DNA of 64,000 bases, taken from positions 1,490,001 to 1,554,000 of the forward strand of contig NZ_CAKAKL010000002.1 in assembly GCF_916619195.1 (NCBI RefSeq), written 5' to 3'. This stretch comes from Inquilinus sp. Marseille-Q2685 (GTDB taxonomy: Bacteria; Pseudomonadota; Alphaproteobacteria; DSM-16000; Inquilinaceae). The position numbers and the translations under genes are program-made. Each line of letters starts with the position of its first letter. Within the stretch, counting starts at the first letter, position 1. Below are positions 1,318-45,427 of the stretch, one piece after another. The notes beneath the pieces were generated by a model, which was not told where the DNA came from, made no database searches, and saw only the letters and a program-made list of their open reading frames with translations.

Positions 1318-1327
1318 GGGGCGGGCG

Positions 1328-2164: not shown

Positions 2165-2190
2165 AAACGAAACAAGCAACGGAGGCTTCG

Positions 2191-3768: not shown

Positions 3769-3772
3769 CCCG

Positions 3773-8441: not shown

Positions 8442-8448
8442 TCGAGCG

Positions 8449-9330: not shown

Positions 9331-9354
9331 CGCTGGTCGCCCCGACCGCGTCCG

Positions 9355-28771: not shown

Positions 28772-29536
28772 CTACACGGATGCCAGCAGGCCGCCATCGA
28801 CATAGACGATCTGGCCGTTGACGAAGTCGGAGGCGGCGGAGGCCAGGAACACGGCGGCCCCGCCCAGCTCGTCCGGCCGGCCCCAGCGGGCCGCGGGGGT
28901 GCGGCGCTTGACGAAGGCGTCGAACTCCGGGTCGTCGATCAGCGCCCGGTTCAGCTCGGTGGCGAAATAGCCGGGGCCGATGCCGTTGACCTGGATGTTG
29001 TGCCGGGCGAACTCGACCGCGAGGTTGCGGGTCAGCATCCTCAGCGCGCCCTTGGCCGAGGCATAGGGGGCGATGGTCGGCCGGCCCAGCTCGCTCATCA
29101 GCGAGCAGATGTTGATGATCTTGCCGGCCTGGCGCTCGACCATTCCGGGCAGCACCGCCTTGGCGGCGACGACGCTGCCGATCAGGTGCACGTCGAGGAT
29201 CATCCGCCAGTCCTCGATCGCGAAGTCCAGGAACGGCTTGCGCAGTTGGACGCCGGCGTTGTTGACCAGGATGTCGACCGCCCCGACCGTCTGCACCGCC
29301 TGCCCGATCGCGGCGGACGCGGCCTCGGCATCGGTCAGGTCGAAGCGGGCGGGATGGGCATCGATGCCCTCGTCGCGCAGCTTGGCCACCGCCTGGGCCA
29401 GGGGCCCGTCGTCGCGGCCGTTCAGGATCACCGTCGCACCGTGGCGGCCGAGCGCGGCGGCGACCGAGAAGCCGAGGCCGCGCGAGGAGCCGGTGACCAG
29501 GGCACGCTTTCCGGTCAGGTCGAACAAGGTGCTCAT
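28772..29536 (-). CDS. Short-chain dehydrogenase, gluconate 5-dehydrogenase (IdnO)-like
   Basis: 254 residues. NAD(P)-binding 'TGSSRGLG', 'ILVNNAGVQ', catalytic Tyr and Lys in 'APYASAKGA', and the tail 'SDFVNGQIVYVDGG'. 'ARHNIQVNGIGPGYFATEL' and 'RTPAARWGRPDEL' are characteristic of gluconate 5-dehydrogenases of the IdnO type. It is the last gene of the leftward operon that starts with the deacetylase. The likely role is oxidation or reduction of a hydroxyl or keto group in the operon's substrate. ATG 29536 overlaps the aminotransferase stop. Confidence 0.9.
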   Translation of the reverse strand: MSTLFDLTGKRALVTGSSRGLGFSVAAALGRHGATVILNGRDDGPLAQAVAKLRDEGIDAHPARFDLTDAEAASAAIGQAVQTVGAVDILVNNAGVQLRKPFLDFAIEDWRMILDVHLIGSVVAAKAVLPGMVERQAGKIINICSLMSELGRPTIAPYASAKGALRMLTRNLAVEFARHNIQVNGIGPGYFATELNRALIDDPEFDAFVKRRTPAARWGRPDELGGAAVFLASAASDFVNGQIVYVDGGLLASV

Positions 29537-30819
29537 CGCGACGTCTCCTGATCGTGGAGGGTGCGGTCGAGGGCGTCGACCAGCATCTCGGCATGCTCGC
29601 GGCCGAAGACCAGCGGCGGGCGCAGCTTCAGCACGTTGCCGTGCCGGCCGCAGCTGCTGACCAGCACCCGCCGCCGGCGCAGGCCGTTGACCACGCGCGC
29701 CGCCAGCGCGCCGTCCGGCTCGCGCGTCGTCCGGTCGCGCACCAGCTCGACGCCGAGGAACAGCCCCGCGCCGCGGATGTCGCCGATGGCGGCATGCTGG
29801 TTCGCCAGCGTCCGCAGGGCCTCGGCCAGGAAGGCCCCGGTGTCGCGGGCGTTGGCGACCAGCCCCTCGCCCTCGATCACGTCCAGCACCGCCATGCCCA
29901 CGGCGGCCGAGACCGGGTTGCCGCCGAAGGTGTTGAAGTAGCGGGTGCGGCGGCCGAATTCGGCCAGCACCTCCGGCCGGGCGGCCATGCCGGCGATCGG
30001 ATGGCCGTCGCCCATCGGCTTGCCCATGGTGACCATGTCCGGGACGACGCCGTGGCGGACGAAACCCCACATGCCGTCGCCGGTGCGGCCGAAGCCGGGC
30101 TGCACCTCGTCGGCGATCACCAGACCGCCCGCCGCCCGCATCGCCGCCGCGGCCGGGGCCAGGAAGCCCGGCGGGTCGGCGAAGACGCCGTCGCTGGAGA
30201 AGATCGTGTCGACCAGCAGCGCCGCCGGCACGATGCCGTGGCGGCGCATGTCCTCGATCGCCGCGGCCACCCGCGCGGCGAAGGCTTGGCCCACATCCCC
30301 TTCGCCGCGATACGCGTCGGGCGGCGCCACCAGCCGGACATGGTCGCCGATCCGCACCGCGCTGCCGAGCGAAGGCGACATCTCCGCCAGCGCCACGGTG
30401 ACGCCGTGATAGGCCCAGTCGGTGACGATCACGCCGGTGCCGCCGGTGACGGTGCGTGCCACCCGAAGGGCCAGGTCGTTGGCCTCGCTGCCGGTGCAGG
30501 TGAACATCACATGGCCGATCTCCGGCGGGAAGGTCGCCAGCAACCGCTCGGCATAGTCGAGCACGCCTTCGCCGAGGTAGCGGGTGTGGGTGTTCAGCAC
30601 CGCCGCCTGCCGCGCCAGGGCGGCGACGACATGCGGGTGGCAGTGCCCGACCGAGGCGACGTTGTTGTAGGCGTCGAGGTAGCGGTCGCCCGCGGCGTCG
30701 GTCAGCCAGACGCCCTCGCCGCGCACGACATGCAGCGGCTCGTCGTAGAACAGGCGGTAGGCCGGGCCCAGCAGCCGGTCGCGGCGGGCGCGCCAGGCGG
30801 CGGGTCGTGGATCAGGCAT
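29533..30819 (-). CDS. Class III PLP enzyme, aminotransferase or phospho-lyase type
   Basis: 428 residues. Class III fold with 'DAYNNVASVGHCHPHV', 'TCTGSEANDLALRVA', 'LVIADEVQPGFGRTGDGMWG' and the PLP Lys267 in 'VTMGKPMGDGHP'. The sequence style resembles the AGXT2L group, whose members are phospho-lyases of phosphoethanolamine or 5-phosphohydroxylysine rather than transaminases. The adjoining kinase gene (8-base overlap) supports a kinase/phospho-lyase pair. A plain transaminase remains possible. Confidence 0.9.
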   Translation of the reverse strand: MPDPRPAAWRARRDRLLGPAYRLFYDEPLHVVRGEGVWLTDAAGDRYLDAYNNVASVGHCHPHVVAALARQAAVLNTHTRYLGEGVLDYAERLLATFPPEIGHVMFTCTGSEANDLALRVARTVTGGTGVIVTDWAYHGVTVALAEMSPSLGSAVRIGDHVRLVAPPDAYRGEGDVGQAFAARVAAAIEDMRRHGIVPAALLVDTIFSSDGVFADPPGFLAPAAAAMRAAGGLVIADEVQPGFGRTGDGMWGFVRHGVVPDMVTMGKPMGDGHPIAGMAARPEVLAEFGRRTRYFNTFGGNPVSAAVGMAVLDVIEGEGLVANARDTGAFLAEALRTLANQHAAIGDIRGAGLFLGVELVRDRTTREPDGALAARVVNGLRRRRVLVSSCGRHGNVLKLRPPLVFGREHAEMLVDALDRTLHDQETSR

Positions 30820-31825
30820 GGGCGGGCTCCTCCCGGCAGATCCGGTGCAGGCAGTCGGCGGCGGCCTGCCGGTCGAGATCGGCGAGGCGCCGCAGCCGCG
30901 CCCAGGCCGTCCGGTTGTTGCGCAGGATGTAGTCCCGGTTTTCCGGATGGCGCCGGGCGCGCCAGGCGCCGATGACCACGATCATCACCAGCCGGGTCGC
31001 CATCAGGTCGCAGAGCAGCTCGATCTCCTCCGGCCGCAGCGGCAGCGCGGCATGGTAGCCGGCGATCAGCTCGGCCGCCGGCCCGAGCGGATCGTCACCG
31101 TCCGAGAGGTGATAGGCGGCGGCGACGGCGACGTCGCTGGCCAGCACGGTGCGCACCGCGTCGCCGAAATCGATCAGGCCGGCGACCGTGTCGGGATCGG
31201 CGGGGTCGACCAGGATATTGCTGGGATTGGCGTCGGCATGGATCACCTGCCGGCGCAGCCCCGGCAGGGCCGGCACCACCGCCCGCTCGAACCGGTCGAG
31301 GCCGGCTGCGGCGAGCGCCCGGCGGTCCGCATCCTCGATCTCGCCCAGCAGGTCGCGCAGCCGCGCCGCGCGGGCCATGTCCCAGATCAGCTCGTGCTCG
31401 TCCGCCGGATGGCGGAAACCGGCGAGCGCCGCGCCGAGGCGGCCGAGGCGTTCGCCGATCCGCCGGCGCTGGCGCGGCGAGCGCGCGGCCACCGCCGCCA
31501 GCGGCATCCCGTCCAGGAAGGACAGCAGCCGGGCGACCAGCGGGGTGCCGGTGCCGATCTCGATCTCCGCCGTCCCGTCGAGCGCCTGCAGGATGCGCGG
31601 CGCCGGCAGGCCCGGATCCGCCCGCTCCAGATGCAGCAGCAGCTCGGTCTGGAAGTTCGTGACCTGCCGGTCCTCGGCCGGATCGGCGATCTTGAGCAGC
31701 ACGCGCCGCCCGGCCGCGGTCTCGATCCGGAAGTTCTGGTCCCGCTCGCTGCTCAGGGCCTCGGCGCGTCCCTCGATTCCCCAGCGGGCGCGGACCAGCC
31801 GCTCGGCGTCCTCCGGCGAGAGCAT
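30812..31825 (-). CDS. APH-fold small-molecule kinase (hydroxylysine kinase-like)
   Basis: 337 residues. Aminoglycoside-phosphotransferase fold: nucleotide region 'SERDQNFRIETAAGRRVLLKI', catalytic loop 'QVIHADANPSNILVD' (Asp198) and metal-binding 'GLIDFGDAV'. The group includes hydroxylysine kinase and homoserine/choline-type kinases, not only resistance enzymes. Flanked by the class III PLP enzyme and the deacetylase in one operon, so it probably phosphorylates a hydroxyl group of the imported amine. ATG 31825 overlaps the deacetylase stop; the longer frame upstream is a shadow. Confidence 0.88.
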   Translation of the reverse strand: MLSPEDAERLVRARWGIEGRAEALSSERDQNFRIETAAGRRVLLKIADPAEDRQVTNFQTELLLHLERADPGLPAPRILQALDGTAEIEIGTGTPLVARLLSFLDGMPLAAVAARSPRQRRRIGERLGRLGAALAGFRHPADEHELIWDMARAARLRDLLGEIEDADRRALAAAGLDRFERAVVPALPGLRRQVIHADANPSNILVDPADPDTVAGLIDFGDAVRTVLASDVAVAAAYHLSDGDDPLGPAAELIAGYHAALPLRPEEIELLCDLMATRLVMIVVIGAWRARRHPENRDYILRNNRTAWARLRRLADLDRQAAADCLHRICREEPAHA

Positions 31826-32856
31826 CAGCCGGAGAAGCCGTCGAAGAAGCGCGTCAGCAGCCGGCCGAGGAATTCGACGGCGTAGCCGCCCTCCTGGATG
31901 ATCGCCGCCGGCTTGCCGAGGGTCCGGATCTTCTCGCCGGTCCGGGCGAAGCCGTCCTCGGTCACCTGCAGCGCCGCCAGCGGCTCGTCCTTCGAGGCGT
32001 CGAAGCCGAGGCTGACCACCACCGCGTCGACCCCGGCCCGCTCGATCGCGGCGATCGCCTGGTCGACCGCGGCGAGCCAGCCCTCGTCGCCGGTGCCGAG
32101 GACGAGCGGCAGGTTGAGGTTGGCCCCCTCTCCCGCCCCGCCCCCGGTCTCGCCGGCATGGCCGACATACCAGGGGTAATAGCGGTTCGGGTCGCCATGC
32201 ACCGAGGCGGTGAAGACGTCCGCGCGGTCCCAGAAGATGCCCTGGGTGCCGTTGCCGTGATGGGCGTCGATGTCGAGCACGGCGACGCGCGCGGCGCCGC
32301 GGGCGCGCAGCCGCTGCGCCGCCAGCGCCGCGTTGTTCAGGTAGCAGTGGCCGCCGGCCCGCGCCGCATAGGTGTGGTGCCCCGGCGGCCGCGCCAGGGC
32401 ATAGGCGGCACGGCCGGCGGCCGCCTCGTCGGCCGCGGCGACGGCGCAGGAAGCGGCGGCGATGGAGGCCGTCCAGGTCTGCGGTCCGATCGGGCAGGAG
32501 GTGTCGGCGGTGTACCAGCCGAGCCGGCCGACGATGGTGCCGGACGGCCTGGCGCCCTGGGCCAGCATCTCCGGGCTCGGATGGATGTTCGGCACCAGCT
32601 CGGGCCCATGATCGGGCAGCGCCGCCCACTCCGCCCAGGCGCCTTCCAGGAAGCCGAGATAATCCGCCGCGTGGACCGACTGCAGCATGGCGCGGTCGAC
32701 CTGCGGCGGCTCGACGACCTCGAGCCTCATCTCGTGCACCGCGGCCAGCAGCGCCTCGGCCCGGGCCGGCACCTCGAAATTCCGGCGCAGCTGGCCGCGC
32801 TGGAGGAAGAATTGCGGCGCGTGGCTGCGCTGGACCTCGTTCCAGAAGACCTTCAT
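31825..32856 (-). CDS. Histone-deacetylase-family enzyme, acetylpolyamine amidohydrolase-like
   Basis: 343 residues. Zn-dependent deacetylase fold with 'ALARPPGHHTYAARAGGHCYLNN', 'VAVLDIDAHHGNGTQGIFW' and 'VSLGFDASKDEPLA', matching the acetylpolyamine amidohydrolases that remove acetyl from polyamines. The start MKVFWNE at 32856 matches where such enzymes begin; an in-frame ATG at 32868 is possible. It heads the leftward operon (deacetylase, kinase, PLP enzyme, SDR) opposite the GntR gene, with the GntR operator in between. Confidence 0.9.
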   Translation of the reverse strand: MKVFWNEVQRSHAPQFFLQRGQLRRNFEVPARAEALLAAVHEMRLEVVEPPQVDRAMLQSVHAADYLGFLEGAWAEWAALPDHGPELVPNIHPSPEMLAQGARPSGTIVGRLGWYTADTSCPIGPQTWTASIAAASCAVAAADEAAAGRAAYALARPPGHHTYAARAGGHCYLNNAALAAQRLRARGAARVAVLDIDAHHGNGTQGIFWDRADVFTASVHGDPNRYYPWYVGHAGETGGGAGEGANLNLPLVLGTGDEGWLAAVDQAIAAIERAGVDAVVVSLGFDASKDEPLAALQVTEDGFARTGEKIRTLGKPAAIIQEGGYAVEFLGRLLTRFFDGFSG

Positions 32857-32914
32857 GTCACTGTCCATTCGTCGAAAGGCGGCCCGGCCTCGACCGCCGC
32901 CGCATCAGTGATGT

Positions 32915-32926
32915 ATGATGCATCAT
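32915..32926. promoter_or_regulatory. GntR operator copy 1 (ATGATGCATCAT)
   Basis: A perfect 12-base palindrome between the deacetylase (start 32856) and GntR (start 32953) genes. The core TGATGCATCAT recurs upstream of the Opp importer operon at 40510. FadR/VanR-type regulators bind palindromes of this size. An in-frame ATG at 32911 would place the operator inside the coding region, which is another reason to prefer ATG 32953 for GntR. Confidence 0.7.
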
Positions 32927-32952
32927 CAAGATCTCTCGCACCATCCCGCTTC

Positions 32953-33660
32953 ATGGACAGCACGACGACCGAGAAACTCCACCCTGTGCCCGGCCTGGTC
33001 GCGATCGACCACGAGAATCTCGGCGACATCGTCTACGGCAAGTTGAGCGCGGCGCTGATGGAGGGGGCGCTGCGGCCGGGGCACCGGCTGCGGATCCGCG
33101 ACCTGGCGCAGCAGATGGGCACCAGCGTCACCCCGGTGCGCGACGCCATCCTGCGGCTGGTGCAGGAGCAGGTGCTGACCCTGCGCAGCCTGCGCGACAT
33201 CCGCGTGCCGTCCCTGACGCTGGAGCAGTATCTCGAGATCCGCGACATCCGGATCGAGCTGGAGGGGCTGGCGGCGGAGCGGGCCGCGGCGCGGGCGGCG
33301 CCGAAGGACCTGAAGCTGCTGGAGCGGCTGATCCGCCAGAACGAGACGGCGATCCGCAGGGGCGACACCGCCGCAGCCATCGCGTTGAACGAGCAGTTCC
33401 ACCTGGCGCTGCCGGCGATCGCCGGGCTGCCGACCCTGGCCGGCATTCTGAAGCCGCTGTGGATGCGGATGGGACCGCTGATCTCCGAGCTCTACGAGGC
33501 CGGCGGCCGGTCGATGATCGAGCATCACTATCCGGTCCTAGAGGCGATCCGCGCCGGCGACGGCCCGGCCGCGCGGCAGGCGATCGCGCAGGACATCCTG
33601 AAGGGCGGCGAGGTCATCCTGCAGCGCAAGCTGCTGGAGGCTTCGTCTCACGACCAGTAG
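32953..33660 (+). CDS. GntR-family regulator, FCD (FadR/VanR) subfamily
   Basis: 235 residues. Winged helix at about 25-90 ('DIVYGKLSAALMEGALRPG', 'IRDLAQQMGTSVTPVRDAI') and an all-helical FCD sensor domain with probable metal/ligand histidines ('LNEQFHLALPA', 'MIEHHYPVLEAIRAGD'). Its candidate operator lies between it and the divergent deacetylase operon and again at 40510, so it probably represses both operons and itself. Its 3' end overlaps the convergent aldolase gene by 13 bases. No ribosome site is evident. Confidence 0.92.
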   Translation: MDSTTTEKLHPVPGLVAIDHENLGDIVYGKLSAALMEGALRPGHRLRIRDLAQQMGTSVTPVRDAILRLVQEQVLTLRSLRDIRVPSLTLEQYLEIRDIRIELEGLAAERAAARAAPKDLKLLERLIRQNETAIRRGDTAAAIALNEQFHLALPAIAGLPTLAGILKPLWMRMGPLISELYEAGGRSMIEHHYPVLEAIRAGDGPAARQAIAQDILKGGEVILQRKLLEASSHDQ

Positions 33661-34424
33661 GGCGGTTTCCCGTCCTCGACCAGCACCAGCGCCGCCTGCC
33701 ACCCCTTCTCGCAATGCTCCAGCGTGGCGCCGCGGCGGAACTGCTCGGCGGTGTGCAGGCGCACCTCCTCCGGCGGCAGCACCAGCTCCGCCCCGCCGGC
33801 CAGGGCCTGGATCTGCGCCTGGCAGGCGCGCTCCAGGTAGTAGATCTGGTTGAACGCCTCCGGGATCGTCCGCCCGGCCACCAGCAGCCCGTGGTTGCGC
33901 AGGATCATCGCCTGATTGTCGCCGAGGTCGCGCACCAGCCGCTCGCGCTCGTCGAGGTCGAGGGCGATGCCCTCATAGCCGTGATAGGCCAGCCGGCCGT
34001 AGAACTTCAGCGCGTGCTGGCTGATCGGCAGCAGGCCGTGCTTCTGCGCCGAGACGGCGATGCCGGCGGCGGTGTGGGTGTGGACGACACAGACCAGATC
34101 GTGCCGGGCGGCGTGGATCGCCGAATGGATGGTGAAGCCGGCGGCGTTCACCTCCTGGTCCATTGCGGCGTCGGCGCCGCCAACCACCCGGCCGTCGAGG
34201 TCGATCTTGACCAGGTCGCTGGCGCGCATGCGGTCGAACAGCACGCCGTAGCGGTTGATCAGGAAGTGGTCCTCCGGCCCCGGCACCCGCGCGCTGATGT
34301 GGGTGTAGATCAGGTCGGTCATCCGGAAATGCGCGACCAGCCGGTACAGCGCCGCCAAGTCGCAGCGCGTCCTCCACTCCGCCTCGCTCATGCCGGCCGG
34401 CACCGTGCCCATGCGTCCGTCCAT
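33648..34424 (-). CDS. Class II aldolase/adducin-family protein
   Basis: 258 residues. Zn-dependent aldolase fold: 'FRMTDLIYTHISARVPG', 'HAARHDLVCVVHTHTAAGIAVSA' (zinc His-x-His) and 'AMILRNHGLLVAGRTIPEAF' (third His). Members cleave phosphorylated or free sugars, or have lost activity. Here it probably cleaves a carbonyl intermediate produced by the operon. It is the last gene of the leftward Opp operon, 12 bases after the dehydrogenase gene. Confidence 0.9.
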   Translation of the reverse strand: MDGRMGTVPAGMSEAEWRTRCDLAALYRLVAHFRMTDLIYTHISARVPGPEDHFLINRYGVLFDRMRASDLVKIDLDGRVVGGADAAMDQEVNAAGFTIHSAIHAARHDLVCVVHTHTAAGIAVSAQKHGLLPISQHALKFYGRLAYHGYEGIALDLDERERLVRDLGDNQAMILRNHGLLVAGRTIPEAFNQIYYLERACQAQIQALAGGAELVLPPEEVRLHTAEQFRRGATLEHCEKGWQAALVLVEDGKPPYWS

Positions 34425-34436
34425 CCGGGCCTCCTC

Positions 34437-35369
34437 TCAATAGCCTCGTTCGCGTTCGACCAGCCCGATCAGCGGCTGTCCCTCGACGGTGCGACGCCAG
34501 TTCTCCGCCGCCTGGCGGGCGATGTCGCGCCGGTCGGTGCGCGACGCCATGTGCGGCGTCACCACCACCGCCGGATGCCGCCAGGCGGGATGGTCCGGCG
34601 GCAGCGGCTCGATCTCGAAGACATCGAGCACGGCGCCGCGCAGATGCCCCTCGTCGAGCAGGCCGAGCAGGTCGTCCAGCACCAGCTGCTCGCCGCGACC
34701 GACATTGACGACGGCGGCACCCGGCTTCAGCCGCGACAGCACCGTGCGATCGAACAGGTACCGCGTCTCCGTCGTCAGCGGCAGGATCGACACCACCACG
34801 TCGCAGGCCTCGATGCAGGGCACCAGCCCCTCCGGCCCGGCGAAGCAGTCCATGCCCTCAACCTGCTTCGGGCCGCGCGACCAGCCGCGCACCCGGTAGC
34901 CGAGGTCGCGCAGGGCCGCGGCGACGCCGAGGCCGATCGCGCCGAGCCCGAGCACCCCGACCGTCCACTCGCCGGCCGGGACCGGCGCCCGCGCCTCCCA
35001 CAGCCGCTGCTCGCGCTGGCGGGCGGCGAGGTCGAAGTCGCGGTGGAAGTACAGCACCGACCACAGGACGTATTCGCGGATCCCGGCGGCCATGGCGCCG
35101 TCGATCATCCGGCACAGCGGCCGGTCGGGCAGGTCCGGGTCGGCGGTGATGTGGTCGACCCCGGCCCCGATCGAATGGATCAGCCGAAGCCGCGGCATCC
35201 CGGCCAGCACGCCCGCCTGCGGCCGCCAGCAGATCGCCATCTCCACCGCCTGCGGGTCGGCATCCGGCCACAGCCGGACATCGGCACCCGGCAGCGCGTC
35301 ACGCATCGGCTCGACCAGATAGCCGAGGTCGAGCGTGCTGGAGAGCAGCAGGACGGTCGGTGCACTCAC
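34437..35369 (-). CDS. D-2-hydroxyacid dehydrogenase, GhrA-like
   Basis: 310 residues. Catalytic-domain hallmark 'LIHSIGAGVDHI', NAD(P) site 'VGVLGLGAIGLGVAAALRDLGY', 'VNVGRGEQLVLDDL', and the active-site Glu/His region 'DVFEIEPLPPDHP...VVVTPHMAS'. Similar to the glyoxylate/hydroxypyruvate reductase A group. Probably reduces a 2-keto acid from the pathway. The start is GTG 35369, overlapping the ATPase stop (GTGA), so it is coupled to the importer. Confidence 0.9.
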   Translation of the reverse strand: MSAPTVLLLSSTLDLGYLVEPMRDALPGADVRLWPDADPQAVEMAICWRPQAGVLAGMPRLRLIHSIGAGVDHITADPDLPDRPLCRMIDGAMAAGIREYVLWSVLYFHRDFDLAARQREQRLWEARAPVPAGEWTVGVLGLGAIGLGVAAALRDLGYRVRGWSRGPKQVEGMDCFAGPEGLVPCIEACDVVVSILPLTTETRYLFDRTVLSRLKPGAAVVNVGRGEQLVLDDLLGLLDEGHLRGAVLDVFEIEPLPPDHPAWRHPAVVVTPHMASRTDRRDIARQAAENWRRTVEGQPLIGLVERERGY

Positions 35370-36979
35370 GCCGCCGGCTCCATCGCCAGGGCCGGCGGCG
35401 TCCAGTGCCGGCCGGGGATGCTGTCCAGCAGCTCGCGCGTGTAGTCATGCGTCGGGGCGGCGAAGACCGCCGCGGTCTCGCCCTGCTCCACGATCTCGCC
35501 GCGACGCATCACCGCGATCCGGTCGCAGATCTGGGCCGCGACGCGCAGGTCGTGGGTGATGAACAGCATCGACAGGCCGAGGCGCCTGCGCAGGTCGCGC
35601 AGCAGGTCCAGCACCTGGGCCTGGACCGAGACGTCGAGGGCCGAGACCGGCTCGTCCGCGATCAGCAGCTCCGGCTTCATCGCCAGCGCCCGGGCGATGC
35701 CGATGCGCTGGCGCTGGCCGCCGGAGAACTCGTGGGGGTAGCGGCCGGCGGCGGCGCGATCCAGCCGCACGAGGTCGAGCAGTTCCAGCGCCTCCGCCTC
35801 GGCCTGGGCCCGCGGGACGCCATGGGCGATCGGCCCCTCGGTGATGATCTCGCCCACCCGCCGCCGCGGGTTGAGCGAGGCGAAGGGGTCCTGGAACACC
35901 ATCTGGATGCGCTTGCGGTAGGGAAGCCAGCCGGACCGCGACAGCGGGCGCAGGTCGGCGCCGTCGAAGACGATGCGGCCGTCGTCCGGGCGCACCAGCC
36001 GGACCAGCGTGCGCGCCAGGGTCGACTTGCCCGAGCCGCTCTCGCCGACCAGGCCGAGCGTCTCGCCGCGCCGGATCTCGATGGTGGCGCCGTCGATCGC
36101 CTTCGTCGCCGGCCGCCGGAACAGGCCGTGCGAGCGGTAGGTCTTGCGGATGTCCCGTGCCGCGACCAGGACGTCCGATCCGACGGCGGCGCCGTCCGGC
36201 GCCCGACCCTCGAAGCGGGGCACGGCGCGGATCAGGGCGCGAGTGTAGGGGTGGGCCGGCGCGTTCAGCACCTCCTGCGCCGCCCCGGTCTCGACGATGC
36301 GGCCGTGCTGCATCACCGCGACCCGGTCGGCGATCTCGGCCACCACGCCGAAGTCATGGGTGATGAAGATCACGCCCATGCCGCGCCGGCGCTGGATCGA
36401 CCGGATCAGGCGCAGGATCTGCATCTGGGTGGTGACGTCGAGCGCCGTGGTCGGCTCGTCCGCCACCAGCATCGCCGGCTCCAGCGCCAGGGCCATGGCG
36501 ATCATCACCCGCTGGCGCTGCCCGCCGGACAACTGGTGCGGGTAGGAGCGGGCGATCCGTGCCGGGTCGGGCAGGCCGACCGCCGCGATCAGCTCGGTCA
36601 CGCGGTTGCCGGGGTGCACCCCGTGCACCTGCAGCACCTCGGCGATCTGGTCGGCAACCCGCATCAGCGGGTTCAGCGCCGTCATCGGCTCCTGGAAGAT
36701 CATGCCGATGCGGGCGCCGCGCAGGGCGCGCATCTCCTCCGGCTTCAGCGCCAGCAGGTCCCGCCCCTCGAACAGGATGCGGCCCGACCGGACCGGCAGC
36801 TGCTTCGGCAAAAGGCCGGTGACCGCGGCGGTCGAGACCGACTTGCCCGACCCGCTCTCGCCGACGATGCACAGGATCTCGCCGGCCTCCAGGGTCAGCG
36901 AGATGTCGGAGACGGCGTTCGGCCGGTCGCCGCCCGGCGGCAGGGCCACGGTGAGGCCGGTGATCTCGAGCAGGCTCAT
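35366..36979 (-). CDS. Peptide-type ABC transporter ATP-binding protein, fused OppD-OppF
   Basis: 537 residues with two ATPase domains: Walker A GESGSGKS at about 40-47, LSGGQRQR, '[12 protein letters not shown]'; then a second [16 protein letters not shown] and '[12 protein letters not shown]'. Same architecture as the fused ATPase at 4582 but a different sequence. ATG 36979 overlaps the permease stop. It energises the importer encoded at 36976-40381. Confidence 0.94.
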
Positions 36980-37809
36980 CGCCGGGTCCTCGCCAGGCGC
37001 GGGTTCAGGGCATCGCTGAGCCCCTCCCCCACCAGGTTGAGCGACAGCACGGTCAGGAAGATCGCGACGCCGGGGAAGACGCTCATCCACCAAGCCAGGC
37101 GGATGACGCTGCGGCCGCTGCCGATCATGAAGCCCCAGGACATCAGGTTCGGGTCGCCGAGGCCGAGAAAGGACAGCGAGGATTCGAGCAGGATCGCGGT
37201 CGCCACCATCAGGCTGGCCAGCACCACCACCGAGGAGGCGACGTTCGGCAGGATCTCGCGCAGGATGATGGCGGCGTGCGACCGGCCCAGCACCTCCGCC
37301 GCCTGGACGAATTCGCGGCTGCGCAGCGACAGGCATTCGGCCCTGACGACGCGCGCCACCGGCGGCCAGGAGACCACGGCGATCGCGATGACGATCGACC
37401 CCAGGCTGGGTGTCAGGATCGCGACCACGACGATGGCCAGGACGAAGCCGGGCACGGTCTGGAAGATCTCGGTGAAGCGCATGATCAGGTCGTCGACCCG
37501 CCCGCCGGCATAGCCGGCCAGCGCGCCGAGCAGCACGCCGATGCCGACCGCCGCCAGGGTCGAGACCACGCCGATCAGCATCGAGACCGAGGCGCCGTAG
37601 GCGATGCCGGCCGCCACGTCCCGTCCCAGCGAGTCGGTGCCGAGCAGGAACTGCTCCTCGCCAGGCGGGGTGAAGGGCGCGCCCTGCATGTCCCATGGCG
37701 AGAACGGGAACAGCACCGGCGCCAGCGCGGCGAGGAGGCCGAGCGCGAGGAGGAAGAGGAGGCCGATGACGGCGCCCTTGTTGCGCAGGAAGGCCCGGGC
37801 GAACGCCAT
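36976..37809 (-). CDS. Peptide-type ABC transporter permease, DppC/OppC type
   Basis: 277 residues. N-terminal span, 'FLLGTDSLGRDVAAGIAYG', the EAA-loop region 'AAEVLGRSHAAIILREILPN' and 'LLESSLSFLGLGDPN' place it in the DppC group. ATG 37809 overlaps the DppB-type stop by one base. It forms the channel with the next gene. Confidence 0.93.
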   Translation of the reverse strand: MAFARAFLRNKGAVIGLLFLLALGLLAALAPVLFPFSPWDMQGAPFTPPGEEQFLLGTDSLGRDVAAGIAYGASVSMLIGVVSTLAAVGIGVLLGALAGYAGGRVDDLIMRFTEIFQTVPGFVLAIVVVAILTPSLGSIVIAIAVVSWPPVARVVRAECLSLRSREFVQAAEVLGRSHAAIILREILPNVASSVVVLASLMVATAILLESSLSFLGLGDPNLMSWGFMIGSGRSVIRLAWWMSVFPGVAIFLTVLSLNLVGEGLSDALNPRLARTRR

Positions 37810-38786
37810 CACACCGCCTCCACCCGCGGATCGATCACGAGGTACAAGAGGTCGGTCACCAGGTTGAACAGCACCACCAGCACCGAGGTGCAGAGGAAGA
37901 CGCCGAGCAGCAGCTGGTAGTCGCGGGCCATCAGCGCGTCGAAGGCCAGCCGGCCGATGCCGGGCCAGGCGAAGACGGTCTCGACCAGCACGGCGCCGCC
38001 GACCAGCTGCCCCGCCTGAATGCCGGCCAGGGTGACGATCGGCAGGAGGGCGTTGCGCAGCACGTGCCGGCGCAGGATCCGCCCTTCCGGCACGCCTTTG
38101 GCGCGGGCGGTGCGGATATGGTCCTGGTCCGCCACCTCCAGCATCGAGGCGCGGGTCATGCGGGCATAGACGGCCATGTAGAACAGGCCGAGCGTCACCG
38201 CCGGCAGGGTCAGGTACCATAGCGTGTCGAGCACCGCGGCGAGCCCGGTCAGGTCGGCGCCGACGGTCTCGCTGCCGAAGCTGGGCAGCCAGTTCAGCCA
38301 GACGCTGAACACCAGCACCAGCATCAGCCCGACCCAGAAGATCGGGGTGGCGTAGAAGCACAGGGCGACGACGGTGACCATGCTGTCGAGCCAGCGCCCG
38401 GCATGGCGCGCCGCCACCACCCCCGCGACCACCCCGGCCAGCAGCGCCAGGAGGAAGGCGGTGCCGGTCAGCAGCAGCGTGGCCGGCAGCCGCTCCAGGA
38501 TCAGCGAGGCGACGCTGCGCTGCTGCGGATAGGAGAAACCGAGATCGAGCTGCGCCACATGGCCGAGATAGATGCCGAGCTGGGTGATCAGCGGCTTGTC
38601 CAGGCCGAATTGCTGGCGCAGCTGGTCGACCAGCTGCTGGTCCGCCGCCCCGGACTGGCCGGCAATGACGCTGGCCGGGTCGCCGGGCGCGGCATGGATC
38701 AGCAGGAAGCTGACCACCGCGACCGCCAGCACGACCAGCACCATCTTGACCAGGCGCCGGCCGAGCAGGAGCAGGAGGCGCGCCAT
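37809..38786 (-). CDS. Peptide-type ABC transporter permease, DppB/OppB type
   Basis: 325 residues. 'LIHAAPGDPASVIAGQSG', 'LRQQFGLDKPLITQLGIYL', the EAA loop 'RAKGVPEGRILRRHVLRNALLP' and 'VETVFAWPGIGRLAFDAL' are DppB hallmarks. ATG 38786 comes 2 bases after the binding-protein stop, and AGGAG lies just upstream in the minus strand. Confidence 0.93.
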   Translation of the reverse strand: MARLLLLLGRRLVKMVLVVLAVAVVSFLLIHAAPGDPASVIAGQSGAADQQLVDQLRQQFGLDKPLITQLGIYLGHVAQLDLGFSYPQQRSVASLILERLPATLLLTGTAFLLALLAGVVAGVVAARHAGRWLDSMVTVVALCFYATPIFWVGLMLVLVFSVWLNWLPSFGSETVGADLTGLAAVLDTLWYLTLPAVTLGLFYMAVYARMTRASMLEVADQDHIRTARAKGVPEGRILRRHVLRNALLPIVTLAGIQAGQLVGGAVLVETVFAWPGIGRLAFDALMARDYQLLLGVFLCTSVLVVLFNLVTDLLYLVIDPRVEAV

Positions 38787-38788
38787 CG

Positions 38789-40381
38789 TCAGGCGATGAA
38801 GACGTCGTCGAAACAGGCGTGCACGCCGGTTCCGGTGGTGATCAGGTTGTTCACCCGCCGGTCGTGGATGGTCGGGAAGCTCATCTCCATCAACCAGACC
38901 ACCGGCACCTCCTGGGTCAGGATCTTCTGCACCTCGTAGAAGGCCTTCTTCCGCTCCTCGGGATCGCCGGACAGGCGGGCAGTCTCGAACAGCTTGTCGA
39001 CCGCCGGGTTGGAGTAGCCTTCGGTGTTGGCGAAGGTCACCTTCTTGATGTTGCTGCTGACATAGGTGCGCTCGACCCCCAGCGTCGGGTCGCCGTACTG
39101 GTAGACGAAGTTGATCGCGGTCTCGTAGTCCCAGTCGCCGACGCGCTTGGCCCAGCTGCCGGCGTCGGTCGTCTCCAGCACCACCTGGATGCCGATCTTG
39201 CCGAGCGACGCCCGGACATATTCCGACAGGCGCGACCAGATCTCGCCATAGGGGATGGCGAGGTGCTTGATGGTGAAGCGGACGCCGTTGGCGTCGGGCT
39301 TCAGCCCGGCGTCGTCCAGCAGCTTCGCCGCCGCCTCGAGGTCGTAGGCCTGCAGCTTCGCGTCGGGATCGTGGTAGCGGGTGGCCGAAGCGACCGGGCT
39401 GGTCGCCGGCTTGCCGACGCCGAACCACAGCCGCTTGACGATGAAGTCGCGGTCGAGCGCGTGGCTGATCGCCTGGCGCACGCGGACGTCGTCCAGCGGC
39501 TTCACCCGGTTGTTGAGCTCGAGCCACATCAGCGGCGCGAAGTATTCCCAGCCCCTTGTCTCGACCATCAGCGTCGGCAGCTGCTGGAACCGCGGCACGT
39601 CGAACGGCTCGATGTCGTTGAACTGGGTCATCTGGACCTGGCCGGTCTCCAGCGCCAGCGCCCGGCTCTGGCTGTCCGGCACGATCCGGTAGATCAGCTG
39701 ATCGAGATAGGGCTGCCCCGGCTTCCAGTAGCCGGCGAACTTCTTCAGCCGGATGAAGCTGCCGCGCTGCCAGGCGTCGAAGGCGAAGGGCCCGGTGCCG
39801 ACCGGGTGCTGGTTCGCCGGGTTGTTGCGGTAGTCGGTGCCGTCGTAGAGGTGCTTCGGCACGATCGCGCAGGTGGTCACGTCGAACATCAGGAGGAACG
39901 GCTCGAACGGTGAATCGAGCGTCAGCTTCACCGTGTTCGGGTCCGGCGCCTCCGCCGCCTTGATCTTCGAGAACACGCCGCGGGCCCGGGGCGCCAGCTC
40001 CATGTGGAACTTCATGATCGAGAAGATCACGTCGTCGGCCGTCATCGGCTTGCCGTCGTGGAACGACACGTTCGGCTGCAGATGGAAGGTGTAGGTCAGC
40101 TTGTCGTCCGACAGCTCCCAGCTCTTCGCCAGCGCCGGCTGGGGCGTCAGGTCGGGGGCGTAGCTGATCAGCCCCTGATAAATCTTGCTGGAGACGATCA
40201 GGGTCGGACCCTGATTGTTCACGCCCGGCACCAGCAGCGGCGGCTCCGGCGTGATCACGGTGGTGAGCGTGCCGCCGGCCTTGGGCGCCACGCCCTGCGC
40301 CCGGGCCTCGGCGAGGCTGAGGAGCGTGACCGCCCCGGCGGTGGCGAGCAGATGCCGCCGTGTCAAGCCATGGATGTCCAT
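38789..40381 (-). CDS. Peptide-type ABC transporter substrate-binding protein (SBP_bac_5), Tat signal
   Basis: 530 residues. Leader 'LTRRHLLATAGAVTLLSLA' suggests Tat export. Family motifs are 'VSFHDGKPMTADDVIFSIMKF', 'HPVGTGPFAFDAWQRGSFI' and 'RVRQAISHALDRDFIV'. It heads the leftward importer operon. The GntR-type palindrome at 40510 lies about 130 bases upstream. The ligand may be an acetylated or hydroxylated amine, judging from the co-regulated enzymes (inference). Confidence 0.93.
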   Translation of the reverse strand: MDIHGLTRRHLLATAGAVTLLSLAEARAQGVAPKAGGTLTTVITPEPPLLVPGVNNQGPTLIVSSKIYQGLISYAPDLTPQPALAKSWELSDDKLTYTFHLQPNVSFHDGKPMTADDVIFSIMKFHMELAPRARGVFSKIKAAEAPDPNTVKLTLDSPFEPFLLMFDVTTCAIVPKHLYDGTDYRNNPANQHPVGTGPFAFDAWQRGSFIRLKKFAGYWKPGQPYLDQLIYRIVPDSQSRALALETGQVQMTQFNDIEPFDVPRFQQLPTLMVETRGWEYFAPLMWLELNNRVKPLDDVRVRQAISHALDRDFIVKRLWFGVGKPATSPVASATRYHDPDAKLQAYDLEAAAKLLDDAGLKPDANGVRFTIKHLAIPYGEIWSRLSEYVRASLGKIGIQVVLETTDAGSWAKRVGDWDYETAINFVYQYGDPTLGVERTYVSSNIKKVTFANTEGYSNPAVDKLFETARLSGDPEERKKAFYEVQKILTQEVPVVWLMEMSFPTIHDRRVNNLITTGTGVHACFDDVFIA

Positions 40382-40509
40382 TCTTCGATCGCCTCCCCTG
40401 CTGCTGGCCGGCTGCCGCCGCGGACCGCGGCGGCTTCCACGGATGGCGGGTCAGGTCCCGTCATCCATGATCAAGCTCTGCAAGTCTCGTGCCATTGGCG
40501 CATCATGTT

Positions 40510-40520
40510 TGATGCATCAT
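40510..40520. promoter_or_regulatory. GntR operator copy 2 (TGATGCATCAT)
   Basis: Eleven bases identical to the core of the palindrome at 32915, here flanked as TT-TGATGCATCAT-AATT in an A+T-richer stretch upstream of the Opp binding-protein gene. The rest of the 350-base gap 40382-40731 holds only the short ORF described below. Confidence 0.68.
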
Positions 40521-40571: not shown

Positions 40572-40733
40572 TCAATCGGGAAGCGCATTGCCCAGAATTT
40601 GATCATTCCGCGCGGTCAGCGCGGCAGCGGGACCGAGCCGGCCCTTCGATCGCGAAACCTCGATTTCCGCCAATAGCGGCAGCCGCACCCCGCGCCAGAC
40701 TGCCTGCGTTTCCTTCATCAGGTCGTCAGTCAT
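40572..40733 (-). CDS. Possible small ORF, 53 residues
   Basis: Starts MTDDLMKETQAVWRGVRLPL and ends with ALPD; mixed charge, no membrane span, not recognised. AAGGAG lies 6 bases before its ATG, a better ribosome site than that of the divergent AlaX-like gene, whose ATG it overlaps by 2 bases. However, those bases also encode AlaX-like residues Ser-Phe, so the match could be chance. Confidence 0.3.
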   Translation of the reverse strand: MTDDLMKETQAVWRGVRLPLLAEIEVSRSKGRLGPAAALTARNDQILGNALPD

Positions 40734-41460
40734 GGCACGCTCCTTCTATCACGAGAATCCGGACCACCTTACCCTCGAGACCGAGGTGGTCGACGCCCGT
40801 CCCGGCCGGGTGCTGCTGGCCCGGTCTCCCTTCTATCCCGGTGGCGGCGGGCAGCTGCCGGACCGCGGCACGCTGCGCTGGCAGGGCGGCGAGGTCGCGG
40901 TCGCCGGCTTCGAACCCGCCGGCGGCAAGGTCTGGCACCTGCTGGACGATCCCACGGTCGAGATGGCCGGCCCGGTCGAGGCCGCGGTCGACCCCGACTT
41001 CCGCCGGATGATGCGCGAGCTGCACACCGGCACGCATATCCTGAACGCGCTGGTCTTCCGGCACTTCGACGGCGCGCTCGTCACCGGGGCTCAGCTGGGC
41101 GCCGACGGGACGGCCCGGCTCGACTTCGACCTGCCCGATGCCGACAACGACCGCCTGCGCGCGCTCGAGCCCGAGATCAACGACCTCATCCGCCAGGATC
41201 TCGCCGTGCGCGACGACTATGTGCCGCTGGCCGAGGCCCACAACACGCGGGGGCTGATCCGCTCGAAATCCGTGACGCCGCCGCCGACGGCGGACGGGCT
41301 GATCCGCATCGTCGACATCGCCGGGCTCGACCGTCAGGCCTGCGGCGGAACGCATCTGGCCTCCACCGGCCGGTCCGGGCCGATCCGGATCCTCAAGGTC
41401 GACAACAAGGGCCGTCACAACCGGCGCATCCGCATCGGCCTCGCCGAGGCGGCGTCCTGA
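40732..41460 (+). CDS. AlaX-type alanyl-tRNA editing protein (tRNA second additional domain)
   Basis: 242 residues. It hydrolyses mischarged Ser- or Gly-tRNA(Ala) in trans. 'RSPFYPGGGGQLPDRGTL' is the N-terminal small domain. The zinc site is His98 and His102 in 'ELHTGTHILNAL', with Cys204 and His208 in 'QACGGTHLASTG', as in the editing domain of alanyl-tRNA synthetase. It lacks the C-terminal extension of long AlaX forms. It stands alone between two leftward operons; only a weak AGG is seen before ATG 40732. Confidence 0.92.
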   Translation: MARSFYHENPDHLTLETEVVDARPGRVLLARSPFYPGGGGQLPDRGTLRWQGGEVAVAGFEPAGGKVWHLLDDPTVEMAGPVEAAVDPDFRRMMRELHTGTHILNALVFRHFDGALVTGAQLGADGTARLDFDLPDADNDRLRALEPEINDLIRQDLAVRDDYVPLAEAHNTRGLIRSKSVTPPPTADGLIRIVDIAGLDRQACGGTHLASTGRSGPIRILKVDNKGRHNRRIRIGLAEAAS

Positions 41461-41477: not shown

Positions 41478-42707
41478 CTAGGCGGCCAGGCGCAGCAGGG
41501 CGGCGAGCAGGACCCGGGTGCCGGCCACGGCGTGCTCCGGTTCGACATGCTCCGCCTCGTTGTGGCTGATGCCGCCGCGGCAGGGCACAAAGATCATGCC
41601 GGACGGGCAGATCCCGGCGATGAACTGGGCGTCGTGGAAGGCGCCGGAGACCAGGCGCCGCTCCGGAAAGCCGCACTCCCGCACCGCCTCGGCGCAGAGC
41701 CCGGTGATCCGGTCGGGAAAGCGCCGGCCGGGGATGGTCAGGAGCGGCCGGATCACCGCCCGGCAGGGCGCGGCGCGTTCGGCGACGATGCTCCGGACTG
41801 CAGTCTCCAGCGCGTCGAGCCGGTCCTCCTCCGGATGCCTCAGGTCGATCGAGAACGTTGCCTCGGCCGGGATGGTGTTGACCGAGCCGGGGTGCAGGGC
41901 GAAGCGGCCGATGGTGAAGCGGGTGCGGTCCTCCGGATCGGCCAGGGCCGCGCGCAGTTCGGCGATGATCCGCTGCGCCGCGACGAAGGCGTCCTTGCGG
42001 AACGCCTCCGGCGTGGTGCCGGCGTGGCCGGCCTCGCCCGACACCGTCACCTCGAGCCAGCGGGCGCCCTGGATGCCGGTGACGATGCCGACCGGGATGC
42101 CCTCCGCCTCCAGCACCGGCCCCTGCTCGATATGCAGCTCGAGATAGGCGGCGAGCGGCGCGCCAAGCGGCCGCGGTTCCGCCTCCGGCGTGGCGGCCAG
42201 CGCCGCCGGCAGGGCGTCGGCGACGGCGATGCCCTCGGCGTCGCGGCTGGCCAGCAGCTCGGCCAGCGGCCGGGCGCCGCTATAGGCCATCGAGCCCATG
42301 GCGCCCGGGGCGAAGCGGCTGCCCTCCTCATTGGTCCAGGCTACCACCTCGACCGGCGGGCGGTGGATGAGGCCGGCATCGTCGATCGCCTCCAGGCATT
42401 CCAGCGCCGCCATCACGCCGAGCGCGCCGTCATAGCGCCCGCCGCGCGGCTGGCTGTCGAGATGGCTGCCGGCGACGACCGGCGGCAGCGACGGGTCGGT
42501 GCCCTCGCGCCGCAGGAACAGGTTGCCGATCGGATCGACGAAGCTGCGGAAGCCGCGCCCCGCGGCGATATCGAGGACATAGCGCCGGGCCGCGATCTCC
42601 GGCTGCGACAGGGCCTGGCGGTCGACGCCGCCGGCCGGGGTGGCGCCGAAGGCGGCGAGCTCGTCCAGCCGCCGCAGCAGCCGCGCGGGGGCGATCTCGG
42701 GGACCAT
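41478..42707 (-). CDS. M20-family Zn-dependent amidohydrolase (N-carbamoyl-amino-acid hydrolase/allantoate amidohydrolase type)
   Basis: 409 residues, family length. Metal ligands appear in 'VVAGSHLDSQPRGGRYDGALGV', 'VVAWTNEEGSRFAPGAMGS', 'LELHIEQGPVLE' and 'RGGISHNEAEHV'; 'SGEAGHAGTTP' is in the dimerisation region. Relatives hydrolyse N-carbamoyl amino acids, beta-ureidopropionate or allantoate. It is last in the sugar-type operon, 8 bases after the BtpA-like gene, which suggests the imported compound carries an amide or ureido group (inference). The start at 42707 leaves a normal N-terminus. Confidence 0.88.
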   Translation of the reverse strand: MVPEIAPARLLRRLDELAAFGATPAGGVDRQALSQPEIAARRYVLDIAAGRGFRSFVDPIGNLFLRREGTDPSLPPVVAGSHLDSQPRGGRYDGALGVMAALECLEAIDDAGLIHRPPVEVVAWTNEEGSRFAPGAMGSMAYSGARPLAELLASRDAEGIAVADALPAALAATPEAEPRPLGAPLAAYLELHIEQGPVLEAEGIPVGIVTGIQGARWLEVTVSGEAGHAGTTPEAFRKDAFVAAQRIIAELRAALADPEDRTRFTIGRFALHPGSVNTIPAEATFSIDLRHPEEDRLDALETAVRSIVAERAAPCRAVIRPLLTIPGRRFPDRITGLCAEAVRECGFPERRLVSGAFHDAQFIAGICPSGMIFVPCRGGISHNEAEHVEPEHAVAGTRVLLAALLRLAA

Positions 42708-42715
42708 CGCCGCCC

Positions 42716-44472: not shown

Positions 44473-44505
44473 CGAGATCCCATGGGTCTGCTCCAGCGGC
44501 GCGGT

Positions 44506-44630
44506 CCCCCCTCACCCTCCCGTCGCTGTCGCGCCGGGCCCCTCCCTCTCCCCGAGGAGAGGGAAACGGGCCGCGCTTCACCTCTCCTTGGGGAGAGGTC
44601 GAAATCGCGCAGCGATTTCGGGTGAGGGGG
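44506..44630. repeat. Palindromic repeat copy A (125 bases)
   Basis: Begins CCCCCTCACCC and ends GGGTGAGGGGG (inverted termini). Inside are the hairpins CCCTCTCC..GGAGAGGG and ACCTCTCC..GGAGAGGT, and GAAATCGCGCAGCGATTTC. It lies between the GATase-like and PfkB genes, transcribed through in both cases. Nearly the same sequence occurs at 48383, and inverted at 58959. Confidence 0.9.
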
Positions 44631-44659
44631 CGTCACCGGCGTCTCCGCATCGATCCGCC

Positions 44660-45424: not shown

Positions 45425-45427
45425 AAG

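What the first reader, a model, noticed from the sequence alone, without database searches (positions are those of the whole stretch)
28772..40381. Putative import, deacetylation, phosphorylation and phospho-lyase pathway for an acetylated hydroxy-amine
One operon holds an acetylpolyamine amidohydrolase-like enzyme, an APH-fold kinase, an AGXT2L-like class III PLP enzyme and an IdnO-like SDR. The neighbouring operon holds a complete Opp importer, a 2-hydroxyacid dehydrogenase and a class II aldolase. In animals, hydroxylysine kinase and a class III phospho-lyase act in sequence on hydroxylysine, and the pair here is adjacent and overlapping. Adding a deacetylase suggests breakdown of an N-acetylated hydroxylysine-, hydroxyputrescine- or ethanolamine-like compound. 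I know of no described bacterial pathway with this exact set.
Basis: partly seen in the sequence, partly recalled or inferred. Interest (0 to 1): 0.8.

Follow-up and report, generated by a model that had tools for sequence, protein, structure and literature searches.

The report
Putative regulon for acylated amino alcohols
An Inquilinus-like bacterium carries two jointly controlled gene blocks that look built to import an amine joined to an acid, cut the two apart, and remove the amine's nitrogen by a phosphorylate-then-eliminate route known from animals; the compound itself is still unknown.

Summary
The PLP enzyme (29533-30819) belongs with phospho-lyases, not transaminases: two solved phospho-lyases score 400 and 366 bits, all others 191 or less, and it shares their family-only residues. 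The overlapping APH-fold kinase has intact catalytic motifs. The two operons form one regulon: ATGATGCATCA(A/T)ACAT, with up to one mismatch, occurs at exactly two places in the 7.29 Mb genome, before the importer operon and between the GntR gene and the deacetylase operon. The same core lies at kinase/phospho-lyase loci with close relatives of this GntR in other genera. All enzyme and importer parts recur, reordered, at 42-72% identity in G572, and most of them in Comamonadaceae and Chelatococcus. Corrections: the SDR looks like a leftover of a lost sugar operon, and the 'acetylpolyamine amidohydrolase' lies outside the clade of the proven M. ramosa enzyme. The chemistry is known in kind, so this is a new variant. 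The substrate is unresolved: probably an amide of a vicinal amino alcohol, its acid perhaps a 2-hydroxy acid.

The parts
31825..32856 (-). HDAC-family zinc amidohydrolase (343 aa), outside the M. ramosa acetylpolyamine amidohydrolase clade
   Evidence: Pfam PF00850; best PDB 9gkz 275, 3men 269, 6phr 253, 3q9b 246 bits; PPGHH, DIDAHHG, GFD and EGGY align with solved APAHs; tree
30812..31825 (-). APH-fold small-molecule kinase (337 aa)
   Evidence: Pfam PF01636; H196-x-D198-xxxx-N203 and D219-F-G-D invariant in 13 rows; AlphaFold pLDDT 91, top PDB folds homoserine kinase 2ppq and amicoumacin kinase AmiN; 6ef6 aminopropanol kinase rank 11
29533..30819 (-). Class III PLP enzyme of the phospho-lyase family (428 aa)
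   Evidence: 5g4i phospholyase 400 bits, 6tor ethanolamine-phosphate phospho-lyase 366 bits, next 191; tree and family-only residues
32953..33660 (+). GntR/FCD regulator; start inferred from the sequence (32929 used)
   Evidence: Pfam FCD and GntR; 52-58% identical relatives sit at APH-PLP loci in other genera
32911..32926 (-). Operator ATGATGCATCATACAT between the GntR and HDAC genes
   Evidence: binding by the GntR protein is inferred
40505..40520 (-). Operator ATGATGCATCAAACAT, about 120 bp upstream of the OppA start
   Evidence: binding by the GntR protein is inferred
38789..40381 (-). OppA-type substrate-binding protein
   Evidence: below all cut-offs; nearest GsiB, NikA, Opp4A
37809..38786 (-). 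OppB-type permease
   Evidence: position and sequence; type by eye and by place; same-family matches next to OppA in relatives
36976..37812 (-). OppC-type permease
   Evidence: Opp4C 278 bits, cut-off 350
35366..36979 (-). Fused OppD-OppF ATPase
   Evidence: two ABC domains, nearest model YejF, below its cut-off
34437..35369 (-). GhrA-like D-2-hydroxyacid dehydrogenase
   Evidence: GhrA 213 bits, cut-off 403
33648..34424 (-). Class II aldolase/adducin family protein (PRK07044, 358 bits, cut-off 207)
28772..29536 (-). SDR, overlapping the PLP gene by 4 bp here but judged NOT part of the pathway

Best explanation
Two operons under one GntR regulator form one catabolic module. An Opp-type ABC importer takes up an amine conjugate (shown: genes and shared operator; inferred: substrate class). 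The HDAC-family zinc enzyme hydrolyses its amide bond (family and zinc-site motifs seen; reaction inferred). The freed amine carries a hydroxyl next to a terminal amino group. The APH-fold kinase phosphorylates the hydroxyl, and the class III PLP enzyme eliminates phosphate and ammonia to give an aldehyde (family membership shown; reactions inferred from characterised relatives). The 2-hydroxyacid dehydrogenase and class II aldolase probably process the other half, a 2-hydroxy or 2-oxo acid (inferred). In sister modules a transaminase stands where kinase plus phospho-lyase stand here, so these two look like an interchangeable amine-processing unit. The SDR is not part. The exact compound is not determined.
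For: Phospho-lyase family: 400 and 366 bits against 191 or less; 36 rows including 5g4i split from 9 transaminase-type rows at 100*; Y25, Y51-N52-N53, R80, Y81, W251, G266, P268, F295, F298, K398 in 36 of 36, in at most 1 of 9 outside. Kinase motifs. One regulon: (two sites in 7.29 Mb at up to 1 mismatch, both here; none in the backwards control; 0 in 100 window shuffles; conserved in L009 and L010). The same core at loci with close relatives of this GntR: exact in 7 of 10 loci with GntR at 52% or more, one mismatch in 2 of 10 (both Chelatococcus, before OppA), absent in 1 of 10 (L174); these 10 are not independent (three of one unnamed genus, two Azospirillum, two Chelatococcus); 3 sites in L172 (GntR 46%); 2 sites in 1.76 Mb of other loci. 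Recurrence: G572, G596, Comamonadaceae and Chelatococcus. Transaminase in the place of APH-PLP: L112/L143, L115/L144. PLP beside APH in 25 of 25 chosen genome loci and 20 of 20 plasmid loci.
Against: No enzyme activity is shown. HDAC lies with APH-PLP in a minority: beside the Inquilinus genomes, a strong match in 2 of 25 genome loci (with for G572) and 3 of 20 plasmid loci (two of the three are near-identical Chelatococcus); weaker HDAC matches (37%) lie 5-6 kb off in L074, L075 and L077. Two of five trio-bearing Inquilinus genomes (G002, G003) lack OppA at 1e-150. Of 68 HDAC neighbourhoods only 9 hold this OppA. The GntR genes of G572 (no match to this one at 1e-6; called GntR by eye) and G596 (29%) are different, and no operator is there. 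Chelatococcus shows no dehydrogenase or aldolase within the stretch read. L014, a kinase relative with 9 kb of flank, has no PLP match. No aldehyde dehydrogenase lies in the two operons. The dehydrogenase and aldolase have no proven role in relatives.
Confidence: 0.6

Rival explanations
1. The trio alone is the pathway (N-acetyl amino alcohol such as N-acetyl-hydroxylysine, -aminopropanol or -ethanolamine: deacetylate, phosphorylate, eliminate). The importer operon with dehydrogenase and aldolase serves a second compound under the same inducer.
For: G003 has the trio without importer or GntR beside it, and neither G002 nor G003 has OppA at 1e-150. APH-PLP pairs occur with different importers: a lysine/arginine/ornithine type in a Klebsiella plasmid, a spermidine/putrescine-annotated one in Rahnella, Pot-like ones elsewhere (the Pot label of my query was given by eye).
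Against: Both operons hold the only two operator sites found in the genome. G572 has importer, dehydrogenase, kinase and PLP genes on one strand in one run.
Confidence: 0.23
2. Acetylpolyamine or hydroxypolyamine breakdown: HDAC protein as a true acetylpolyamine amidohydrolase.
For: The best solved relatives are named acetylpolyamine amidohydrolases, and one of them, 3men, falls on the window's side of the tree. In one MAG (L028) the nearest relative outside the genus lies beside DAO-like and Pot-like genes (names by eye).
Against: The proven M. ramosa enzyme and another HDAC-family protein of this genome lie together, split from the window enzyme by a 100* branch of length 1.12. The M. ramosa Glu106 position is Val here. 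HDACs beside Pot-like importers and transaminases form a separate group.
Confidence: 0.12
3. Pantothenate-like amide: HDAC releases pantoate; the dehydrogenase (or the PanE-family protein in its place in G360 and G066) makes ketopantoate; the aldolase cleaves it to ketoisovalerate and formaldehyde; a transaminase, or here kinase plus phospho-lyase, handles the amine.
For: PanE-family genes follow the same importer in G360 and G066. Genes that look like formaldehyde detoxification lie near the HDAC in G066 (by eye only).
Against: The PanE family is broad. Beta-alanine has no hydroxyl for the kinase. A literature search listed no such cluster (listing only).
Confidence: 0.05
4. The PLP enzyme is an ordinary omega-transaminase and the kinase is unrelated, for example a resistance enzyme.
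For: Both belong to large families; aminoglycoside phosphotransferases appear among the fold matches. L014 has a kinase relative without a PLP match nearby.
Against: the pair stands together in 45 of 45 chosen loci (25, 20), and both proteins match parts of the fused NCBIfam model PRK06148, below its cut-off.
Confidence: 0.05

Closest known systems
Mammalian hydroxylysine kinase and phospho-lyases acting on 5-phosphohydroxylysine and phosphoethanolamine (Veiga-da-Cunha et al. 2012; not held; title seen in the reference list of PMC8154272; the rest recalled)
   Same: Kinase followed by a class III phospho-lyase; PLP enzyme 366 bits to 6tor
   Different: No amidohydrolase, importer, dehydrogenase or aldolase known there; substrate here unknown
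Bacterial phospholyase of PDB 5g4i/5g4j (organism Arthrobacter aurescens recalled)
   Same: Closest solved relative of the PLP enzyme (400 bits)
   Different: Its gene context was not examined here
Aut/RMM microcompartment 1-amino-2-propanol loci (PMC6620236, PMC4207490; passages read)
   Same: GntR regulator, an aminotransferase gene (class not stated in the passages), a phosphotransferase; the microcompartment aminopropanol kinase 6ef6 has the same fold
   Different: There a microcompartment, a permease and an amino alcohol dehydrogenase; here an ABC importer and an amidohydrolase. PMC6620236 assigns the PLP enzyme as a transaminase
Acetylpolyamine amidohydrolases (M. ramosa 3q9b; P. aeruginosa PA0321 and PA1409, PMC4784309, passages; cluster 4 of PMC11532494, passages)
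   Same: HDAC family, zinc-site motifs
   Different: Separate from the M. ramosa enzyme in the tree, no Glu106 equivalent, other gene partners
Herbaspirillum operon with 4-aminobutyrate aminotransferase, hydroxylysine kinase, 2-haloacid dehalogenase and an AsnC/Lrp regulator (PMC13275390, one passage)
   Same: Annotated kinase and aminotransferase genes in one operon, like L072 and L076
   Different: No amidohydrolase or Opp importer in that passage; pathway not tested there as far as seen

Membership tests
Class III phospho-lyase (ETNPPL/AGXT2L type) | Closer to characterised phospho-lyases than to transaminases | tested here: met
   400 and 366 bits against 191 or less; tree
Class III phospho-lyase (ETNPPL/AGXT2L type) | PLP lysine and family-only residues | tested here: met
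   GKPMG motif, Lys between G266 and P268 (sequence); residues listed; which of them bind phosphate was not tested
Class III phospho-lyase (ETNPPL/AGXT2L type) | Releases phosphate and ammonia from a phospho-amino-alcohol | not testable with these tools
   needs an assay
APH-fold amino alcohol kinase | HxDxxxxN and DFG-like catalytic motifs, APH fold | tested here: met
APH-fold amino alcohol kinase | Substrate is a vicinal amino alcohol | not testable with these tools
   only indirect, from the phospho-lyase partner
Acetylpolyamine amidohydrolase | HDAC family and zinc-site residues | tested here: met
Acetylpolyamine amidohydrolase | Groups with a characterised acetylpolyamine amidohydrolase | tested here: inconclusive
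   split from M. ramosa 3q9b by a 100* branch, but 3men (named so by its depositors) is on the window's side; 9gkz, 6phr, PA0321 and PA1409 were not in the tree
Acetylpolyamine amidohydrolase | Glu at the M. ramosa Glu106 position | tested here: not met
   Val; but PsApaH has His and is a polyamine deacetylase (PMC11532494), so this alone is weak
Acetylpolyamine amidohydrolase | Deacetylates acetylpolyamines | not testable with these tools
   needs an assay
Aut/RMM microcompartment system | Shell proteins in the locus | not tested
   no shell-protein search was run
Single regulon | Shared operator before both operons, rare elsewhere | tested here: met
   binding itself not tested
IdnO-type SDR as pathway member | Kept with the trio in relatives | tested here: not met
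   directly after the trio in 2 of 5 genomes that have it; beside a KduI/IolB gene in the other 3

The most novel reading that the evidence does not exclude
A new catabolic route for natural conjugates of a 2-hydroxy acid with a vicinal amino alcohol: one GntR regulon imports the conjugate whole, an HDAC-family enzyme of a new functional type splits it, 2-hydroxyacid dehydrogenase and class II aldolase degrade the acid half, and kinase plus phospho-lyase degrade the amine half, with a transaminase taking over that half in sister modules.
Probability: 0.3. Interest if true: 0.72.

Novelty: new variant of a known kind. Interest (0 to 1): 0.52.

Why it matters
Kinase plus phospho-lyase gene pairs are common in the bacteria searched here (for example 260 of 72,556 plasmid records hold a relative of the kinase), and I saw no proven substrate for them in what was read. 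Here a regulator, a defined operator and an importer are tied to the pair, so the inducer, and hence the substrate, can be looked for directly. It also gives a group of HDAC-family proteins without a known substrate a concrete pathway, and suggests an amine-processing unit that is swapped as a block.

Tried and rejected
SDR as member: rejected. M20 hydrolase at 41478-42707 as member: HDAC-linked M20 genes occur in relatives (13 of 68 HDAC loci at 150 bits or more), but this genome's best match to the one from L110 lies on contig C5 (54%), not in the window (44%). ArgE-like M20 of sister modules: no match in this genome at 1e-30, without a positive control. Papers: searches joining an acetylpolyamine amidohydrolase with a phosphotransferase and class III gene, a phospholyase with Arthrobacter, an Opp importer with class II aldolase and hydroxyacid dehydrogenase and aminopropanol kinase with phospholyase listed none; pantothenate and hydroxylysine gave listings with nothing on such a cluster; led to the papers cited. 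The library holds open-licence papers only. The hydroxyectoine genes beside the Chelatococcus locus were not pursued.

Trees are quick searches; long branches meet in the PLP tree (5g4i with L036), so the order inside the phospho-lyase side is unsure. Selections: one search used 68 of the 127 places (the query itself not counted) listed: the top 70 less three (G049, the second of G290, the second of G278) plus another HDAC of G000. The 25 genome loci are high-scoring, mostly unfused kinase matches, not all of them. Of the 13 loci, L014, L015, L019 and L021 show no PLP match; the last three are cut near the kinase by a contig end. Two PLP rows that repeat loci already in the set were left out. 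Odds lowered slightly (best explanation 0.62 to 0.60) on rechecking, because the GntR genes of G572 and G596 differ and L014 lacks the PLP gene.
Full report
Observation. The genes exist where stated. On the - strand lie two tight blocks: OppA-OppB-OppC-OppDF-2-hydroxyacid dehydrogenase-class II aldolase (40381 down to 33648) and HDAC-APH-PLP-SDR (32856 down to 28772). Between them a GntR/FCD gene lies on the + strand; it converges on the aldolase gene and diverges from the HDAC gene. The genome is Inquilinus-like: among named records the nearest matches of the kinase (81-90%) are two Inquilinus limosus records and one titled Mycobacterium sp. KBS0706.

PLP enzyme. Against the PDB sequences the two top hits are solved phospho-lyases, 5g4i (400 bits) and 6tor (366 bits); the next is 191 bits. 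In a tree of 45 rows, 36 rows (window, kinase-linked relatives, 5g4i) are split from 9 transaminase-type rows (8 other class III proteins of this genome, one from L082) at 100*. Residues found in 36 of 36 and in at most 1 of 9 outside include Y25, Y51-N52-N53, R80, Y81, W251, G266, P268, F295, F298 and K398. The reaction type is thus inferred by family, not shown.

Kinase. APH fold, with H196, D198, N203 and D219 invariant in 13 rows. The AlphaFold model (pLDDT 91) is nearest to homoserine kinase 2ppq and amicoumacin kinase; the microcompartment aminopropanol kinase 6ef6 is rank 11. Both kinase and PLP enzyme match parts of the fused NCBIfam model PRK06148, below its cut-off.

HDAC-family enzyme. 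Its best solved relatives are named acetylpolyamine amidohydrolases (275 to 246 bits) and the zinc-site motifs align. In a 77-row tree the M. ramosa enzyme and another HDAC-family protein of this genome (C2:483101) lie on one side of a 100* branch of length 1.12 and the window enzyme on the other, grouped with importer-linked relatives L028, L085 and L082_5467 (96*); 3men, named acetylpolyamine aminohydrolase by its depositors, is on the window's side. The M. ramosa Glu106 position holds Val. PMC11532494 (passages) reports His there in another polyamine deacetylase, so the residue alone decides little.

One regulon. Comparing the two upstream regions gave a common site, ATGATGCATCATACAT and ATGATGCATCAAACAT, conserved in L009 and L010. 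With up to 2 mismatches the window has only these two (0 in 100 shuffles). With up to 1 mismatch the whole 7.29 Mb genome has only these two, and the backwards control none. In loci whose GntR is 52% or more identical, the core TGATGCATCA is exact in 7 of 10, off by one base of the 12-base palindrome in 2 of 10 (both Chelatococcus), absent in 1 of 10; three of the ten are of one unnamed genus, two are Azospirillum and two Chelatococcus, so they are not ten independent cases. L172 (46%) has three sites. Of 16 stretches with more distant GntR genes (two of them from one region of G596), 15 have no site and one has a site inside the kinase gene. The other loci hold 2 sites in 1.76 Mb. Neither trio locus without GntR in view (L011, L041) has the site. 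That the GntR protein binds it is inferred.

Recurrence. Within the genus, 5 of 6 genomes have the kinase and all 5 have HDAC-APH-PLP in order. OppA is in 3 of 6. Outside, G572 has a GntR-like gene (by eye; no match to this one at 1e-6) and HDAC divergent from aldolase-OppABCDF-dehydrogenase-APH-PLP, at 42 to 72% identity. G596 has aldolase-OppABCDF-dehydrogenase-transaminase-HDAC-EamA-GntR-HDAC-APH-PLP; a Comamonadaceae plasmid is alike as far as read. Two Chelatococcus plasmids have OppABCDF-HDAC-GntR-M20-APH-PLP, with no dehydrogenase or aldolase in the stretch read. Roseomonas mucosa has the importer, APH-PLP and an amidase, with no HDAC in the stretch read. Of 68 HDAC neighbourhoods (68 of 127 places listed, selection told under Tried and rejected) 9 hold the importer's OppA, 7 the aldolase, 12 a class III transaminase like that of L082 and 3 the dehydrogenase, at 150 bits or more. 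In G290 and G367 a transaminase ends the importer operon where G572 has APH-PLP; in G360 and G066 a PanE-family gene follows the importer where others have the dehydrogenase. So importer, amidohydrolase, 2-hydroxyacid-type dehydrogenase and aldolase look like a common frame, and the amine-processing part is exchanged. What this says about the substrate is inference.

Limits. APH-PLP pairs mostly live without HDAC: besides the Inquilinus genomes, a strong HDAC match is in 2 of 25 genome loci and 3 of 20 plasmid loci. They go with varied importers: Pot-like, lysine/arginine/ornithine type, sugar type. One kinase relative, L014, has no PLP match within 9 kb. In L029-L032 a RidA-like gene stands divergent from the pair (the L029 one confirmed by Pfam), which fits an enamine or imine product but is only suggestive.

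SDR. In G002, G003 and G005 the SDR lies beside a KduI/IolB-family gene; in G002 these stand in a run with a LacI regulator, an Opp-type importer and a GH39 gene. In G003 the KduI/IolB gene is in two pieces and the SDR holds a stop. In G000 and G001 the KduI/IolB gene is not found genome-wide at 1e-20, and the SDR follows the PLP gene directly. The simplest reading is a deletion that joined the leftover SDR to the trio; the direction of change was not tested on a tree.

What is known. Kinase plus phospho-lyase is established in animals (Veiga-da-Cunha 2012, not read; title seen in PMC8154272). In bacteria, the Aut/RMM microcompartment loci join a phosphotransferase and an aminotransferase to 1-amino-2-propanol (passages), and 5g4i is a solved bacterial phospholyase. 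I judge the finding a new variant: known chemistry, with a new amidohydrolase-importer frame and a defined regulon. That no paper describes this set rests in an open-licence library only.

Noticed in passing
window 41478-46519, - strand: Run of a phosphotriesterase-family gene, a GATase1-like gene, a PfkB kinase, a BtpA-family gene and an M20 hydrolase; reads like a separate catabolic operon.
   Followed up: partly
window 40732-41460, + strand: Stand-alone alanyl-tRNA editing (AlaX-like) gene between the importer operon and the M20 operon.
   Followed up: no
L041 (G002) 608-11739: LacI, Opp-type importer, KduI/IolB, SDR and GH39 sugar operon next to the trio; its KduI/IolB gene is not found in G000 and G001.
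   Followed up: yes
L159 and L166 (Chelatococcus plasmids): Hydroxyectoine and ectoine breakdown genes shortly downstream of the HDAC-GntR-M20-APH-PLP module.
   Followed up: no
L029-L032 (family f37): RidA-like gene divergent from the APH-PLP pair; would fit hydrolysis of an enamine or imine product.
   Followed up: partly
L171 (Klebsiella pneumoniae plasmid): APH-PLP pair beside a lysine/arginine/ornithine ABC importer and a GntR gene; a hint at hydroxylysine there.
   Followed up: no
L072, L076, L079, L080, L161, L175: Haloacid dehalogenase type II-like gene recurrently beside APH-PLP, in some with an Lrp regulator.
   Followed up: no
L164, L173 (Shinella, Agrobacterium plasmids): APH-PLP pair in a run with propanediol/glycerol dehydratase subunits, a sugar ABC importer and an SDR-type dehydrogenase.
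   Followed up: no
L009, record titled Mycobacterium sp. KBS0706: Record looks mislabelled: 89-99% protein identity to this Inquilinus-like cluster.
   Followed up: no
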